Shown here piece after piece: positions 1-58,120 of a stretch of 64,000 nucleotides of DNA (positions within the stretch are counted from its first letter, which is position 1; each line of letters begins with the position of its first letter). The position numbers and the translations under genes are program-made. This DNA comes from an uncultured Litoreibacter sp. (GTDB lineage: Bacteria; Pseudomonadota; Alphaproteobacteria; Rhodobacterales; Rhodobacteraceae), in assembly GCA_947494645.1 (NCBI GenBank), contig CANLVO010000002.1, positions 428,359 to 492,358 on the forward strand, read 5' to 3'. The notes under the pieces were generated by a model. That model was not told where the DNA came from, made no database searches, and saw only the letters and a list, made by a program, of their open reading frames with translations.

Positions 1-244
1 CTGCTGTGATGGCGGCGACCGACATAAGGAGGGAACCATACCCTTTGTCGATGACCCTCCCTGCGACGGGAGCTGCACATGCAGAGCAAATGAGCGCAGT
101 GGCGATTACAAAAGACAGCTGTGGCTTGGTGAAGCCGAGGGTGACTTCCCAGTGCAAAACCAGTGCGGGGAATACGTAGTACAACCCGGCCCAGACCAGT
201 GTTTGGCCGAGGGCAAGAGCAAGGATGGGCGGGTCTTTAAGCAT
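1..244 (-). CDS. MFS transporter, N-terminal fragment cut by the window edge
   Basis: The reverse strand is open from an ATG at 244 to the window start, giving about 81 residues of a hydrophobic protein. The first roughly 20 residues after MLKDPP form one membrane segment. A second segment follows, and then the sequence GRVIDKGYG, which fits the loop-2/3 motif A of the major facilitator superfamily (G-R-x-x-D-x-x-G). The ATG at 244 is preferred over an in-frame ATG at 259 because AGAGGT lies six bases upstream. The gene is divergent from fadH. The substrate cannot be judged from this fragment. Confidence 0.75.
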   Translation of the reverse strand, partial: MLKDPPILALALGQTLVWAGLYYVFPALVLHWEVTLGFTKPQLSFVIATALICSACAAPVAGRVIDKGYGSLLMSVAAITA

Positions 245-301
245 CGCACCTCTTTTCATGACCGAGCAAAGGGCAAGGTGTCAGGTATGGCAACCCGCTG
301 A

Positions 302-2392
<2,091 letters not shown>

Positions 2393-48788: not shown

Positions 48789-49618
48789 CTGAGCATGACT
48801 TTACGCAGCGCCTCATCCACCTCTGGGGTGTAGCCAAACCACCGCTCGAAACCTGGTACAGCTTGGTGCAGCAACATGCCAAGGCCGTCGACCGTGGCGC
48901 AGCCTTTCTCGGAAGCGGCAGCCAGAAGCGGGGTCGTCAGCGGGGTGTAGACAAGATCGGTGACAAGCGTCTCGGTCCGCAGGTTGTCCAGCGGCAGTTT
49001 CAGTTCTTCTTTGCCCGTCATGCCAAGCGACGTGGTGTTGATCAGCGTGGCCGCCTCGGGAAGCCTGCTGGACACGTTGTTCCAATCGACGACCTCCACC
49101 TTGCCCCCGAAATGCGCCTTCAGCGCGTCGGCGCGGGCGCGGGTGCGGTTGGCCAAGAGGATCTGAGGCACACGTTCATGCAACAGCGAGGCCACAATCG
49201 CCCGCGCGGCGCCGCCTGCCCCGAGCACCAAGGCCGGTCCAGCGGTTGCGTCCCACGCTGGCGCGTTTTGGCGCAGGTTGGCAATGAAGCCCACGCCATC
49301 TGTGTTGTCGGCATGCAATTTGCCGTCGCTTTGGAAGGTCAGTGTGTTTGCGGCACCGATTAGGGAAGCCCGGTCGGAAATCACGTCAGCGATATCAAGC
49401 ACGGCTTCCTTGTGCGGGATCGTTACGTTGACACCGCGAAAACCTGCTTTGGGCAGAACGTTCAAGACGTGGGCAAGGTCGTTCGTGGCCACGTCCATCG
49501 GAATATAGTGTCCCGGCACGCCGTAGCGTTGCAGCCAATGGCTGTGCAAGCGCGGCGACTTGGAATGGCCAATCGGGCGACCAATGACACCAGCGAGGGG
49601 GATATGTGGGACGTTCAT
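48785..49618 (-). CDS. aroE: Shikimate dehydrogenase
   Basis: The 277-residue enzyme reduces 3-dehydroshikimate with NADPH. Catalytic K70 (N-V-T-I-P-H-K) and D107 (N-T-D-G) are present with the E. coli spacing, and the NADPH loop G-A-G-G-A-A-R-A follows. It overlaps maf (stop at 49615) by 4 bp. Confidence 0.95.
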
Positions 49619-50214
49619 CCTGGGATCGCACTCTTCAACGAAAGGTAGTTCAACACATCCAATAGCGGAATTCCTAGGACAGTGAAATAATCTCCTGTCA
49701 CCTGCGCAAAGAGGCGCGCGCCTTCGGCCTCCAACTGGAAGCCACCGACGCAGTATTTGATCTCGTCCCAGTTCCGCGTGACATAGTCATCCAAGTAGGC
49801 GTCGGAGAAATTGCGCATCATCAGCTTGGCCTCTTTGACCGCCCGCCAAACCGGTTCGCCATCCTCAAAGATCACCGCGGCCGAATGCAGGCTGTGCTGG
49901 GAACCGCGCAAGGCACGCAGCTGGGCACGGGCCTCTTCCGGGCTGCCGGGTTTTGAAAGGAGCTGGCCCTGATGCTCCAACACCTGATCGCTGCCGATCA
50001 CGAAACCACTCGAATGGCGCGCGGCAACTTTTCGGGCTTTGAATTCCGCCAGAGTGTCGGCAATATCGCGGGGCTTGGCGGCCTCAGACATCAAGCTGGC
50101 CTTGATCATATCTTCGTCAATCCTTGGCACCTCGACGGTGAAGGAAACACCGGCATTTGCCAGTAGCTGGCGCCGAATGTCAGAGCCGGAGGCGAGGATA
50201 ATGGGCTTGGTCAT
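49615..50214 (-). CDS. maf: Maf-family nucleotide pyrophosphatase
   Basis: The 199-residue protein hydrolyses non-canonical or modified nucleoside triphosphates; overproduction in some bacteria blocks septation. It starts with the family phrase [12 protein letters not shown] and has the catalytic D in I-G-S-D-Q. The frame is open 64 codons upstream, but that part lies in the candidate origin and has no similarity to the family, so ATG 50214 is chosen. The start codon overlaps a DnaA-box-like sequence. Confidence 0.92.
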
Positions 50215-50598
50215 GTGGGTAACTCTGAGGGTAACTGGAGGGATAGGTGTTGCACGAACCCGGAGATATCCACTGTGATTTATCCTTGACGCAGAGTCAC
50301 CCACATTGCGCAGACTCTGTTCGATGAGTCGCTCTATGTGGACGGGCGAAAAACAGGGCTGTGTGGGAATCGTCGGTATGCAACGAATATCCACTGGCAT
50401 ATCCACATGGCGAGAAAGGTCTAAGTATCTGTAAAATATCGGTAATTATTTACTTTCCGGATTTGGGGACTGAAAGAAAGCACCGAGACCTAGACTGTGG
50501 GCTAAAATTTGATCCCCGCTATCCACAGCCCCTACATATTACATCATCTTTTCTTTCTTCTTTTTATATTTAAGAGGGATAACAGAAAGGGAGTGCGC
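50214..50598. other. Candidate chromosomal replication origin (oriC) between maf and hemJ
   Basis: The only gene-free stretch over 300 bp. It holds at least nine nonamers related to the DnaA box TTATCCACA. The best are TGTGGGTAA (50214-50222), ATATCCACA (50399-50407) and CTATCCACA (50519-50527), each one mismatch from the consensus or its complement. ATATCCACT occurs twice (50266, 50387), and weaker copies lie at 50297, 50337, 50362 and 50496. Four GANTC sites fall within 78 bp (50294, 50313, 50326, 50367). AT-rich segments at 50428-50455 and 50528-50580 could unwind. The flanking genes diverge, and par genes with parS sites lie 3.5-8 kb to the right, as for alphaproteobacterial origins. A formal test would be a GC-skew switch here. 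Confidence 0.75.
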
Positions 50599-51048
50599 AT
50601 GACCGATCTGCTCTACTCTGCCTACCCTTGGGTGAAGGCATTGCACGTGATGGCCGTGATCTCCTGGATGGCGGGATTGTTCTATCTCCCTCGGCTGTTT
50701 GTCCATCACACAGAGAAAGTTGAAACAGGTTCTGAGACCGACGCCCTGTTTGCAATGATGGAGCAGAAGCTGCTGCGGGTGATCATGAACCCCGCCATGA
50801 TTGTGGCTTGGGCAGCTGGTCTCTACATGATTGCGCTGGGTGGGTTTGATTGGTCAGCGGAGTGGTCTTGGATCAAGCTGGTGTGCATTCTTGGAATGAC
50901 TTGGTTTCACCATTGGTGCGGTTTGCGCCGCAAAGAGCTCGCCTCAGGCACGAATACCCGCACAGGGCGGCAGTACCGCTTGATGAACGAGGTACCCACC
51001 GTGCTGATGATCCTGATTGTTGTGAGCGTTATTGTGCGCCCGTTCTAG
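50599..51048 (+). CDS. hemJ: Protoporphyrinogen oxidase HemJ
   Basis: The 149-residue membrane protein oxidises protoporphyrinogen IX in heme synthesis. It has four membrane helices; the conserved heme-binding H16 lies in K-A-L-H-V-M-A-V-I-S-W-M-A-G-L. The frame is open 30 codons upstream through the candidate origin, but ATG 50599 is preceded by AAAGGGAG and starts the family's homology. It is the first gene rightward of the origin. Confidence 0.92.
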   Translation: MTDLLYSAYPWVKALHVMAVISWMAGLFYLPRLFVHHTEKVETGSETDALFAMMEQKLLRVIMNPAMIVAWAAGLYMIALGGFDWSAEWSWIKLVCILGMTWFHHWCGLRRKELASGTNTRTGRQYRLMNEVPTVLMILIVVSVIVRPF

Positions 51049-51199
51049 GGCACGCAACGTTTGACAGAAGAGGCTTGGCCTCCTATGTCGGGTTCAAACG
51101 CAAACAGTGCGCCGTCCGGCGTGGCTGGTTTCCGAGAGAAAATTTGATAACACGCGCCAAGTCAGGGTTCCTGCTTGGCCAGATGACAGGTGTAGCCCC

Positions 51200-51229
51200 A
51201 TGTCCGATGAGAATATGTCCGATGAAAAC
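51200..51229 (+). repeat. Tandem 15-bp duplication at the rho start
   Basis: ATGTCCGATGAGAAT is followed at once by ATGTCCGATGAAAAC, encoding M-S-D-E-N twice. Both copies have an in-frame ATG, so two start sites are possible. Confidence 0.7.
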
Positions 51230-52546
51230 GTGACCGAAGAAAAAGAAACGAATGACGGCCCGATGCTTCTTGGCGAAGATACCGAGAGCCTGAACCTGTC
51301 AGATCTGAAAAAGCAGAAGCCTGCTGATCTGGTCTCGATGGCCGAAGAGCTGGAGATCGAGAACGCCTCCACCATGCGCAAGGGGGACATCATGTTCTCC
51401 ATCCTCAAAGAGCGCGCGGATGAGGGTTGGGAAATCTCTGGTGACGGTGTGCTTGAAGTGATGCAGGACGGCTTTGGCTTCCTGCGCTCACCAGAAGCAA
51501 ACTACCTTCCCGGCCCGGATGATATCTACGTCTCGCCCGACATGATCCGTCAGCACTCATTGCGGACTGGTGATACTGTGGATGGTGTGATGGACGCGCC
51601 GAAAGAGGGCCAGAATTACTTCGCGATCAACAAGGTCACGACGATCAATTTCGAAGAGCCCGAGAAAGCCCGCCACAAGGTGAGCTTCGATAACCTGACG
51701 CCGCTTTACCCGGACGAACGCATGACGATGGAGATCGCTGATCCCACGATCAAAGATCGCTCCGCCCGGATCATTGATTTGGTTGCACCGATTGGGAAAG
51801 GGCAACGGTCGTTGATCGTGGCACCGCCGCGTACTGGTAAGACCGTACTGCTGCAAAACATTGCGGCCTCGATCGAGAAGAACCACCCTGAATGCTACCT
51901 GATCGTTTTGCTGATCGACGAGCGCCCAGAAGAGGTGACCGACATGCAGCGTTCTGTGAAGGGTGAGGTCGTGTCCTCGACCTTTGACGAGCCTGCCACG
52001 CGCCACGTTGGTGTGTCGGAGATGGTGATCGAGAAGGCCAAACGCTTGGTCGAACACAAACGCGACGTTGTGATCCTGCTTGATTCCATTACGCGGCTGG
52101 GTCGTGCCTTCAACACGGTTGTGCCCTCCTCTGGCAAAGTTCTGACCGGTGGTGTGGACGCCAACGCGCTGCAACGCCCCAAGCGGTTCTTTGGTGCTGC
52201 CCGGAATATCGAGGAAGGCGGTTCGCTGACGATTATCGCGACTGCGCTGATCGACACTGGCTCGCGCATGGACGAGGTGATCTTCGAGGAATTCAAAGGC
52301 ACCGGTAACTCCGAGATTGTGCTGGACCGCAAGGTCGCAGACAAGCGCGTCTTCCCTGCGATGGACATCCTCAAGTCGGGTACCCGGAAAGAGGACCTGC
52401 TGGTCGATGCGAAAGACCTGCAGAAAACCTTTGTGCTGCGCCGTATCCTGAATCCGATGGGCACCACCGACGCCATCGAGTTCCTGATTGGGAAGTTGAA
52501 GCAGACCAAGTCCAACGACGACTTCTTCGACTCGATGAACGCGTAG
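51200..52546 (+). CDS. rho: Transcription termination factor Rho
   Basis: The 448-residue hexameric helicase ends transcription. Residues about 30-150 hold the N-terminal Rho and RNA-binding (cold-shock) domains; Walker A is A-P-P-R-T-G-K-T and the Q/R-loop region ends in D-S-I-T-R-L-G-R. The frame is open to 51107, but the ATG at 51200 has AGG upstream; a second ATG at 51215 starts an identical M-S-D-E-N, because the first 30 bases are a tandem repeat. Confidence 0.94.
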
Positions 52547-53902: not shown

Positions 53903-53918
53903 TGTTTCACGTGAAACA
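53903..53918. promoter_or_regulatory. parS centromere site 1, across the mnmG start
   Basis: TGTTTCACGTGAAACA is a perfect 16-bp palindrome, identical to the universal parS site of ParB. It begins one base after the mnmG ribosome binding site and contains the GTG start codon (53911), so ParB binding here could affect mnmG expression. parAB is 2.5 kb away. Confidence 0.95.
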
Positions 53919-55776: not shown

Positions 55777-56408
55777 CGCCCTCTGATCGTGACTTCGAAG
55801 CCTTGCAGCAGGTCGTCGGTGTTTCACGTGAAACAATGGATGATCTAACGCAATTTGTGATGCTTCTTCAGAAGTGGAATCGCGCCATAAATTTAGTGTC
55901 TCCGAACAGTCTGCCTGCAGTTTGGGAGCGTCATATCATTGATTCCGCTCAACTATTTCCCTTCATACCGCCTTCAACGCGGAGCATTGCGGATGTAGGG
56001 ACAGGTGGCGGATTCCCCGGCCTTGTGTTGGCAATCCTGTCCAGGCGTGACGCGCCAGAACGGCGTGTGACCCTCATCGAATCGGATAAGCGCAAATGCG
56101 CGTTTCTGTTAACCGCGTCCTCTCAACTTGAATTGAATGTTAAGGTTGTCGCGGAGCGGATTGAGCACGCGGATCCTTGCGCTGCAGATATGTTGACGTC
56201 GCGGGCACTGGCGCCGCTTTCGCAGTTGCTTGGCTATGCGGAGCGTCACTTGAAGTCCGACGGAACTGCCTTGCTTTTGAAAGGACGCACGGCGGAGGCA
56301 GAAGTCGAGGAAGCGCTTGCGTCATGGTCGCTGGACCTTAAAAGAAGAGAGAGCAAGACGACGGATGATGCCGTCATTCTTGAGATCACAAACCTGAGGT
56401 CACGCTGA
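55773..56408 (+). CDS. rsmG: 16S rRNA (guanine-527-N7)-methyltransferase RsmG (GidB)
   Basis: The 211-residue enzyme methylates G527 in 16S rRNA. The SAM motif [10 protein letters not shown] is clear at about 72-81. It starts with a GTG that overlaps the mnmG stop (GTGA). A parS site lies inside its coding region. Confidence 0.94.
55820..55835. promoter_or_regulatory. parS centromere site 2, inside rsmG
   Basis: A second perfect TGTTTCACGTGAAACA lies in the first codons of rsmG, where it encodes V-S-R-E-T. parS in this place is a known feature of the family; the phrase S-R-E-T is conserved in RsmG because of it. It is 1.9 kb from the first site. Confidence 0.95.
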
Positions 56409-56412
56409 GACT

Positions 56413-57222
56413 ATGCCGAAAACCCCTCGTATTATCTCAGTGGCGAACCAGAAGGGTGGCGTGGGCAAAACCACGACCACCATTAACCTTGGTGCGGCTC
56501 TGGCGGCTTCTGGCCTGAAGGTATTGATCATCGATCTTGACCCGCAAGGGAATGCGTCGACGGGGCTTGGAATTGATCAGGCGGACCGGAAGCGGTCGAC
56601 CTATGACCTTATTCTGAATGACGCGAAACTTGGCGATGTTGCGATTTCGGCGAACGCGCCGAACCTTTGGATTACTCCCGCGACGACCGATCTTAGCTCT
56701 GCTGACCTTGAGCTGGTCGCGACGGCGAGGCGCGTGTTTCTGTTGAAGGATGCTCTGCGGAATACGGAAACCTACGCACTGGGTTTTGACTTTATCCTGA
56801 TCGATTGCCCACCGTCGCTGAACCTGCTGACGCTGAACGCAATGGTGGCCTCAGATACCGTATTGGTCCCATTGCAGGCGGAGTTTTTTGCGCTTGAAGG
56901 GCTGTCTCAGCTCATGCTGTCCGTGCGCGAGATCAGAGAAACCGCGAACCCGCAGCTGAGGTTGGAGGGTGTTGTTCTGACCATGTATGATCGGCGCAAC
57001 AATCTGTGTCATCAGGTGGAAATGGATGCCCGCGAAAACCTACAAGCCCTTGTTTTTAAAACAATGATTCCCAGAAATGTACGTCTGAGCGAGGCACCGT
57101 CTTACGGCATGCCCGTCATCAATTACGACCCGACCTCGCGGGGGGCGGTGGCCTATAAGGCGCTCGCGCGAGAGATTCTGGAACGGCAAATCAATACGGG
57201 AAAGGCATCTCATGGCAGATAA
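56413..57222 (+). CDS. parA: Chromosome partitioning ATPase ParA (Soj)
   Basis: The 269-residue protein has the deviant Walker A K-G-G-V-G-K-T (14-20) near the N-terminus, the family phrase D-L-D-P-Q-G-N-A-S and D-C-P-P-S-L. With ParB and the parS sites it moves the replicated origin. It overlaps parB by 11 bp and lies 4 bp after rsmG. Confidence 0.97.
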   Translation: MPKTPRIISVANQKGGVGKTTTTINLGAALAASGLKVLIIDLDPQGNASTGLGIDQADRKRSTYDLILNDAKLGDVAISANAPNLWITPATTDLSSADLELVATARRVFLLKDALRNTETYALGFDFILIDCPPSLNLLTLNAMVASDTVLVPLQAEFFALEGLSQLMLSVREIRETANPQLRLEGVVLTMYDRRNNLCHQVEMDARENLQALVFKTMIPRNVRLSEAPSYGMPVINYDPTSRGAVAYKALAREILERQINTGKASHGR

Positions 57223-58120
57223 GAAAGAAAAGCGCGGCCTTGGGCGTGGATTGTCTGCCTTAATGGCGGATGTCGATCTGACACAGCGCGACGATCCATC
57301 GGTTGCGCAGCCCGCAACATCACCTGAGCGGTCATTGCCGATCGAACGTGTGGTTCCAAATCCGGATCAGCCGCGGAGAGACTTTGATGAGGCAGCGCTG
57401 CAGGAATTGTCTGACTCAATCTCCGAGAAAGGGATCATTCAGCCACTGATCGTTCGTGCGTCGCCTGATGGTGGGGACACGTATCAGATCGTCGCGGGGG
57501 AGCGGCGCTGGCGTGCGGCGCAACGTGCGCAGCTTCACGAGGTTCCGGTTGTCATCCGCGATTTCACCGACACTGAAGTGCTTGAGATCGCAATTATCGA
57601 AAATGTTCAACGCGCGGATCTTAACCCAGTTGAAGAGGCGTTAGGATATCGTCAACTACAAGAGAAGTTCGGTCACACGCAGGAACAGCTGTCGCGCGCT
57701 TTGGGCAAAAGCCGCAGTCACATTGCGAACCTTATGCGACTGCTTAATCTGCCGAATGCAGTTTTGACCTGGCTGCGGGAGGACAAGCTGTCTGCTGGAC
57801 ACGCACGAGCGTTGATCACCTCCGACGACCCCACCGCTTTGGCGCGGGTGGTCATGGCGAAAGGGTTGTCGGTCCGCGAAACAGAGAAATTGGCGAAAGC
57901 CGGGGCTGTAAAGGATACTGCCAAGCCCCGGTCGCCCGGTGCACCAGAGAAAGACGCAGATACGCGGGCTTTGGAGCAGGATTTGCAAGCCGCGCTGGGG
58001 ATGAAGGTTAACATCGACCATGCTTCTGGGGGTGAGACAGGCAAGCTGTCGATCTCTTATAAGAATTTTGAGCAGCTTGATGCGCTTTGTCGGAAGCTTT
58101 CGCAGACTGAGACCGGTTAG
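57212..58120 (+). CDS. parB: Chromosome partitioning protein ParB (Spo0J)
   Basis: The 302-residue CTPase binds parS. It begins with the ParA-contact phrase R-G-L-G-R-G-L-S-A-L-M, then the CTP motif G-E-R-R-W-R-A, and a helix-turn-helix (about 145-180, with A-L-G-K-S-R-S-H-I-A-N). Its TAG stop and the TAA of hemW share the four bases TTAG. Confidence 0.97.
   Translation: MADKKEKRGLGRGLSALMADVDLTQRDDPSVAQPATSPERSLPIERVVPNPDQPRRDFDEAALQELSDSISEKGIIQPLIVRASPDGGDTYQIVAGERRWRAAQRAQLHEVPVVIRDFTDTEVLEIAIIENVQRADLNPVEEALGYRQLQEKFGHTQEQLSRALGKSRSHIANLMRLLNLPNAVLTWLREDKLSAGHARALITSDDPTALARVVMAKGLSVRETEKLAKAGAVKDTAKPRSPGAPEKDADTRALEQDLQAALGMKVNIDHASGGETGKLSISYKNFEQLDALCRKLSQTETG

What the first reader, a model, noticed from the sequence alone, without database searches (positions are those of the whole stretch)
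50214..50598. Chromosomal replication origin in the maf-hemJ gap
At least nine DnaA-box-like nonamers (three of them one mismatch from TTATCCACA or its complement), AT-rich parts and divergent flanking genes meet in the only long non-coding stretch. The known origin of Caulobacter and relatives lies between hemE and a DUF299 gene; here both are missing and maf and hemJ border the origin directly, which is a different border arrangement.
Basis: partly seen in the sequence, partly recalled or inferred. Interest (0 to 1): 0.7.

Follow-up and report, generated by a model that had tools for sequence, protein, structure and literature searches.

The report
Chromosome replication origin of a roseobacter
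The 384-base gap between two housekeeping genes is very probably where this roseobacter-like bacterium starts copying its chromosome; its gene neighbours, though unlike those of the textbook relative Caulobacter, are the usual ones for its family, and it carries a short conserved segment that probably opens the DNA.

Summary
The maf-hemJ gap (50215-50598) with the box overlapping the maf start has 3 DnaA boxes at one mismatch and 7 at two or fewer (not nine). It is the densest DnaA-box stretch in 800 kb of its contig and holds the least stable 50-mer there (start 50533). The only two parS in those 800 kb lie 3.3 and 5.2 kb away. The best-conserved part is a 70-bp core at the hemJ end (tandem boxes, spacer, CTAC, CATCATC, T-rich tract). 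A model of it hits 110 of 149 family genomes, 107 once only. It stays in place in 19 genomes where hemJ is gone (maf|core|rho), and in 5 of 9 loci examined outside the family it marks the DUF299-hemE gap, the Caulobacter-type origin: an origin part, not just a hemJ promoter. The maf/hemJ border is the family's usual state (63 of 80 named loci, some from other families; DUF299 in 7 of 149 family genomes). Against it: GC skew does not switch at the gap in this genome (nearest change on the left about 80 kb away), and the offset recurs in the genus. New member of a known kind.

The parts
49618..50214 (-). maf, left border gene (stop codon at 49615-49617)
   Evidence: Pfam PF02545, 145 bits
50599..51048 (+). 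hemJ (UPF0093), right border gene; rho follows at 51200
   Evidence: Pfam PF03653, 196 bits
50215..50598 (.). putative oriC: DnaA-box array plus unwinding core
50214..50222 (-). DnaA box TTACCCACA (1 mismatch), overlapping the maf start codon; 8 of 21 aligned gaps read GTGGATAAC here
50226..50234 (-). DnaA box TTACCCTCA (2 mismatches)
50266..50274 (+). DnaA box ATATCCACT (2 mismatches); columns conserved at 75% or more in the 21-gap alignment
50297..50305 (+). DnaA box TCACCCACA (2 mismatches); CCACA columns conserved at 75% or more in the 21-gap alignment
50387..50395 (+). DnaA box ATATCCACT (2 mismatches)
50399..50407 (+). DnaA box ATATCCACA (1 mismatch)
50422..50434 (-). place of an IHF-like site found about 160-200 nt before hemJ in relatives; degenerate in this genome
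   Evidence: 84 gaps: 63 with a site at 1 mismatch or fewer, 36.9 expected
50510..50518 (+). first box of the core, TGATCCCCG (3 mismatches here; TGATCCACA or TAATCCACA in many relatives)
50519..50527 (+). second box of the core, CTATCCACA (1 mismatch)
50528..50541 (+). C-rich spacer with CCCTAC
50542..50557 (+). CATCATCTTTTCTTTC, containing the most invariant element; lower strand 3'-TAG TAG AAA-5' meets the published (.A.)3 DnaA-trio rule with a spacer of 15
50533..50582 (.). predicted DNA unwinding element, least stable 50-mer in 800 kb
53903..53918 (.). perfect parS at the start of mnmG
55820..55835 (.). perfect parS near the start of rsmG
56413..58120 (+). parA and parB

Best explanation
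The maf-hemJ gap is the oriC of this chromosome. DnaA binds a loose array of weak-to-moderate boxes on the maf side (50214-50407). Bending in the middle brings them to a tandem box pair at 50510-50527. DnaA-ATP then runs from the pair over the CCCTAC spacer onto one strand of the adjoining CATCATC/T-rich tract, the least stable DNA around, which melts at about 50533-50582 so that helicase can be loaded. ParB at two parS sites 3-5 kb away segregates the new origins. Shown: box density, instability, conservation and its independence of the border genes, parS, sequence kinship with the DUF299-hemE gap of other families. Inferred: DnaA binding, melting, strand choice, bending by IHF, segregation role, actual initiation.
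For: Top DnaA-box density and lowest duplex stability of 800 kb. Core conserved in the 21-gap alignment and across the family; core model R1 gives one hit in own genome (E=1e-16) and hits in 110 of 149 family genomes, 107 of these with a single hit. Best hit 25-114 nt upstream of the hemJ match in 87 of 110. Loci were fetched for all of the other 23: 19 lie in a maf|core|rho gap without hemJ, 1 in maf|core|hemE, 1 beside maf at a contig end, 2 (weak hits of G111 and G172) had no match to the query genes. R1 outside the family: 5 of 9 loci examined lie in the DUF299-hemE gap, in five different families. The only two parS at one mismatch or fewer in 800 kb lie 3.3 and 5.2 kb away. KOPS-like polarity: left 17 forward/38 reverse, right 42/18, Fisher p=3.6e-5, cumulative minimum 27-33 kb from the gap. 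The larger arm-swapped segments against congener G006 have midpoints within about 61 kb of the gap. GC skew changes sign at the gap in G023.
Against: GC skew does not switch at the gap here: zero or positive from about -80 to +100 kb, scrambled over 800 kb, mean left +0.014 and right +0.033. In G016, G006 and G017 of the same genus the change lies between 39 and 129 kb to the maf side; in G085 the left arm has no net sign and changes at 215-275 kb. 39 of 149 family genomes gave no R1 hit at E<=0.05. Four of nine R1 loci outside the family showed no maf, hemE, DUF299 or hemJ. One small arm-swapped segment against G006 has its midpoint near +138 kb, and midpoints against G023 scatter from about -122 to +175 kb. 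No perfect box in the gap, though one lies alone at C2:423758. Nothing was measured in cells.
Confidence: 0.92

Rival explanations
1. The conserved 70-bp block is the promoter or 5' leader of hemJ, and the DnaA boxes are incidental or regulate hemJ or maf.
For: It sits a median of 46 nt before the hemJ match in 87 of 110 family genomes and ends shortly before the hemJ start.
Against: It keeps its place in 19 genomes where hemJ is gone and rho follows, lies upstream of hemE and not directly before hemJ in G024 (weak hit, E=0.05), and is found in the DUF299-hemE gap in 5 of 9 loci examined from other families.
Confidence: 0.03
2. The gap is a DnaA-titration or regulatory cluster and the working origin lies some 40-130 kb away on the maf side, where GC skew changes in this genus.
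For: Offset of the skew change in own genome, G016, G006 and G017. In that span of own contig lie one perfect DnaA box (C2:423758), five-box stretches at two mismatches (C2:354741, 428350) and a rather unstable 50-mer (C2:362121, 56.2 kcal against 52.9).
Against: None of these coincide in one place; no parS and no second core copy was found; the gap leads in box density and instability; skew changes sign at the gap in G023; the KOPS-like minimum lies on the other side.
Confidence: 0.04
3. The contig is a secondary replicon and this is its origin.
For: The window lies on a 994-kb contig of an 8-contig draft.
Against: The contig carries dnaA and hemE and around the gap the coaE-aroE-maf and hemJ-rho-mnmE-parA order seen in most of the named family loci; in G023 the same locus is on the only contig, 3.56 Mb.
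Confidence: 0.01

Closest known systems
Caulobacter crescentus Cori and the alphaproteobacterial hemE/COG1806 (DUF299) origins
   Same: In loci that keep DUF299 and hemE, the same coaE-aroE-maf genes follow on one side and hemJ, rho on the other (L171, L172, L181); R1, built from loci without hemE, recognises the DUF299-hemE gap in five other families; in congeners the first core box is TGATCCACA, which looks like the T-to-G box described for Cori (PMC4468827, passages)
   Different: hemE and DUF299 no longer border it; no full CtrA site (recalled TTAA-N7-TTAA) in the gap
Predicted Rhodobacteraceae oriCs (PMC6699656; 101 strains by Ori-Finder)
   Same: Same family; DnaA boxes, GC minimum and closeness to parAB used as criteria (passages)
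   Different: The passages seen give no border genes and no conserved core
Basal unwinding system of Bacillus subtilis type: DnaA boxes, spacer, DnaA-trios (PMC8287927)
   Same: Tandem boxes, short spacer, then at least three (.A.) trios; the window meets the published rule
   Different: 3'-[GA]A[TA]-5' trios are rare here (7 of 84 gaps); the common form is CATCATC, that is 3'-TAG-TAG-5' (55 of 83 gaps)
E. coli oriC 13-mers (recalled GATCTNTTNTTTT)
   Same: CATCTTTTCTTTC at 50545-50557 fits 9 of the 11 specified positions
   Different: Single copy; the resemblance is recalled and was not tested against chance

Membership tests
bacterial chromosomal oriC | cluster of DnaA boxes above chance | tested here: met
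bacterial chromosomal oriC | AT-rich easily melted element beside the boxes | tested here: met
   (computed stability)
bacterial chromosomal oriC | GC-skew switch at the site | tested here: not met
   own genome: no switch; G023: switch at the gap. Not strictly defining: PMC1914354 says GC skew was insufficient in several alphaproteobacteria (passages)
bacterial chromosomal oriC | origin-proximal parS and parAB | tested here: met
bacterial chromosomal oriC | autonomous replication or initiation mapped in vivo | not testable with these tools
   needs cells
alphaproteobacterial hemE/DUF299 origin | bordered by hemE and DUF299 | tested here: not met
   hemE about 117 kb away, DUF299 not found; not filed as that border type, only as kin of its core
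alphaproteobacterial hemE/DUF299 origin | sequence kinship of the core | tested here: met
   R1 hits in the DUF299-hemE gap, 5 of 9 non-family loci examined, five families
BUS / DnaA-trio | box at 2 mismatches or fewer, spacer 0-16, three or more (.A.) trios | tested here: met
   window: CTATCCACA, spacer 15, ATCATCTTT; 65 of 84 gaps, shuffled 26.0. Permissive, and it counts a match anywhere in the gap on either strand
BUS / DnaA-trio | trios of the form 3'-[GA]A[TA]-5' | tested here: not met
   none in window; 7 of 84 gaps, shuffled 1.8
BUS / DnaA-trio | DnaA-dependent unwinding | not testable with these tools
   needs protein
Caulobacter Cori | CtrA sites in the origin | tested here: not met
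   no TTAA-N7-TTAA and no TTAAC in the gap (motif recalled)

The most novel reading that the evidence does not exclude
Origins of the Rhodobacteraceae type use a mirrored DnaA-trio: CATCATC (3'-TAG-TAG-5') stands where other bacteria have a 3'-GAT-GAT-5' repeat, placed after a tandem box pair and held across the family while the border genes (DUF299, hemE, hemJ, and maf in two Paracoccus loci) came and went. It would be an example of the 'deviant trio' that the authors of PMC8287927 suspected among the 15% of genomes without a recognised trio.
Probability: 0.3. Interest if true: 0.6.

Novelty: new member of a known kind. Interest (0 to 1): 0.36.

Why it matters
It ties the origin of a large bacterial family to a 70-bp searchable signature that works even where GC skew is scrambled and border genes differ. 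It links these origins by sequence to the DUF299-hemE gap of other families. It gives a direct test of whether DnaA tolerates a non-canonical trio.

Tried and rejected
Rejected as sole role: hemJ promoter (19 hemJ-less genomes keep the core). Rejected: an unusual border for this genome (usual in the family). CtrA control: no site in the gap. GANTC cluster: 4 in the gap, and only 0.23% of 385-nt stretches in 800 kb reach 4; over 84 gaps the mean is 1.68 against 0.81 expected, range 0 to 11, so not a fixed feature. Rfam at gathering thresholds: no match in the window. Plasmid records: no match to 50480-50600. The five-box group at C2:428350 (window 1-385) is four boxes at two mismatches, two of them overlapping in one palindrome, and one at one mismatch, in and around a short space between divergent ORFs; not pursued. 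In one search my rho query was in a wrong frame (its rho percentages are void); one search used the right frame. In one search gaps were cut at the maf start codon, so the box overlapping that codon is not counted there. L109 equals L045 (same genome, inferred from coordinates); it is counted twice among the 84 gaps and was dropped (83 left).

Full report
What is there. The window lies on G000:C2:428359-492358 of a 3.44-Mb, 8-contig draft. Among the 80 named loci kept, the closest by HemJ are an uncultured Litoreibacter (80%) and Roseobacter sp. CCS2 (71%). Around the gap the order is dnaQ-like, coaE, aroE, maf (minus), gap, hemJ, rho, mnmE, mnmG, rsmG, parA, parB (plus) (rsmG by place and translation only). 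The gap, with the box overlapping the maf start, holds 3 DnaA boxes at one mismatch and 7 at two or fewer; 0 of 1000 shuffles reach either number. Over 800 kb of the contig it is the densest place at both thresholds, and the least stable of 799,951 50-mers starts at 50533, six bases behind the last box. Five perfect boxes lie in the 800 kb, none in the gap. Two perfect parS lie at 53903 and 55820, the only ones at one mismatch or fewer in 800 kb.

The conserved core. An alignment of 21 gaps (20 of the genus, own included, plus G023) shows change on the maf side but a nearly invariant block at the hemJ end. In 48 aligned relatives the columns at 90% or more include ATCC of the first box and CATCATC plus a T run; these 48 were picked from 78 that already matched the block at E<=0.01, so this is not an unbiased sample. 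Over 83 gaps taken without that choice, CATCATC occurs in the last 130 nt of 55 (shuffled mean 2.0), CCTAC in 50 (7.6) and T[AG]ATCC in 61 (6.0).

Does it belong to hemJ or to the origin? A sequence-only model R1 hits 110 of 149 family genomes at E<=0.05, 107 of them once only; 39 gave nothing, under filters that lose weak matches. The best hit is 25-114 nt before the hemJ match in 87 of 110. I fetched loci for all of the other 23: 19 read maf|core|rho with hemJ gone, 1 maf|core|hemE, 1 maf|core|contig end, and 2 (G111, G172; weak hits) match none of the query genes. In G111 a second hit does lie by hemJ. In the class, 40 of 190 genomes hit at E<=0.01, three of them own and family. Of the nine loci fetched from outside the family, five, in five families, lie between DUF299 and hemE, the classical origin place; four show no maf, hemE, DUF299 or hemJ (one has a weak mnmE-like match). 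The other non-family hits were not examined. So the core is best read as an origin part older than the loss of the border genes.

Borders. Among 80 named loci, 63 have maf directly before the hemJ gap without hemE or DUF299. The 17 others include DUF299|gap|hemJ (Rubricella, Bradyrhizobium), maf|gap|hemE-hemJ (L167), DUF299|gap|hemE (Hoeflea and others), aroE|gap|hemJ (two Paracoccus), cut contigs and distant taxa. In the genus, 20 of 21 genomes have maf beside the gap; the last is cut by a contig end. DUF299 occurs in 7 of 149 family genomes. Border changes of alphaproteobacterial origins are known in print (PMC1914354, passages).

Strand asymmetry. On the left the sign changes about 80 kb away. 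In G016, G006 and G017 it changes between 39 and 129 kb on that side, in G023 at the gap, and in G085 between 215 and 275 kb with no net left-arm sign (these five were sampled in 20-kb stretches, G016 in six only). Two facts soften this. KOPS-like GGGNAGGG (recalled motif) flips polarity, 17/38 left against 42/18 right, with the minimum 27-33 kb on the hemJ side. Gene order against G006 shows arm-swapped inverted segments, own +147 to +257 kb matching -193 to -379 and own -273 to -234 matching +299 to +221, with midpoints between about -61 and +13 kb of the gap; a small one (-261 to +537) has its midpoint near +138, and midpoints against G023 scatter from about -122 to +175 (midpoints by hand, stretches sampled). 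Such inversions scramble skew. The recurring offset inside the genus remains unexplained.

Mechanism. By the published rule (box, spacer 0-16, three or more (.A.) trios; PMC8287927, passages) the window passes with CTATCCACA, spacer 15, ATCATCTTT; 65 of 84 gaps pass against 26.0 shuffled, but trios of the form 3'-[GA]A[TA]-5' are met in only 7 of 84. I read CATCATC as a 3'-TAG-5' trio: an inference. The paper itself suspects deviant trios. An IHF-like site clusters about 160-200 nt before hemJ (63 of 84 gaps at one mismatch or fewer, 36.9 expected; 11 perfect, 2.5 expected), but in the window it is degenerate. Boxes of Cori with a T-to-G change are described in PMC4468827 (passages); TGATCCACA in congeners looks like one.

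Print. The ten searches listed no paper whose title or abstract start describes this core; oriCs of 101 Rhodobacteraceae were predicted before (PMC6699656, passages). In Rhodobacter sphaeroides the origin regions were identified by GC skew with replication and partition loci (PMC6315104, passages), and Ori-Finder origins were used for 179 closed alphaproteobacterial genomes (PMC8116508, passages). Most subscription papers and the DoriC entries were not seen, so absence from print is not shown.

Verdict. Real, correctly named, ordinary in kind; the conserved core is the part worth keeping.

Noticed in passing
50294, 50313, 50326, 50367: Four GANTC (CcrM-type) sites in the gap, the only ones in 49500-51500; rare in 800 kb but variable in relatives.
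   Followed up: partly
L216-L232, L234, L235 (unnamed family genomes): In 17 family genomes the canonical hemJ is gone from the origin and only divergent PF03653 matches are found elsewhere; in two more (G134, G175) no PF03653 match was found.
   Followed up: partly
window 50214-50222: A DnaA box overlaps the maf start codon, so DnaA binding could affect maf expression.
   Followed up: no
own C2 about 398-478 kb; G016, G006, G017: Recurring offset of the GC-skew change to the maf side of the origin within one genus.
   Followed up: partly
L158, L179 (Paracoccus): maf also missing beside the origin: aroE borders the gap directly.
   Followed up: no
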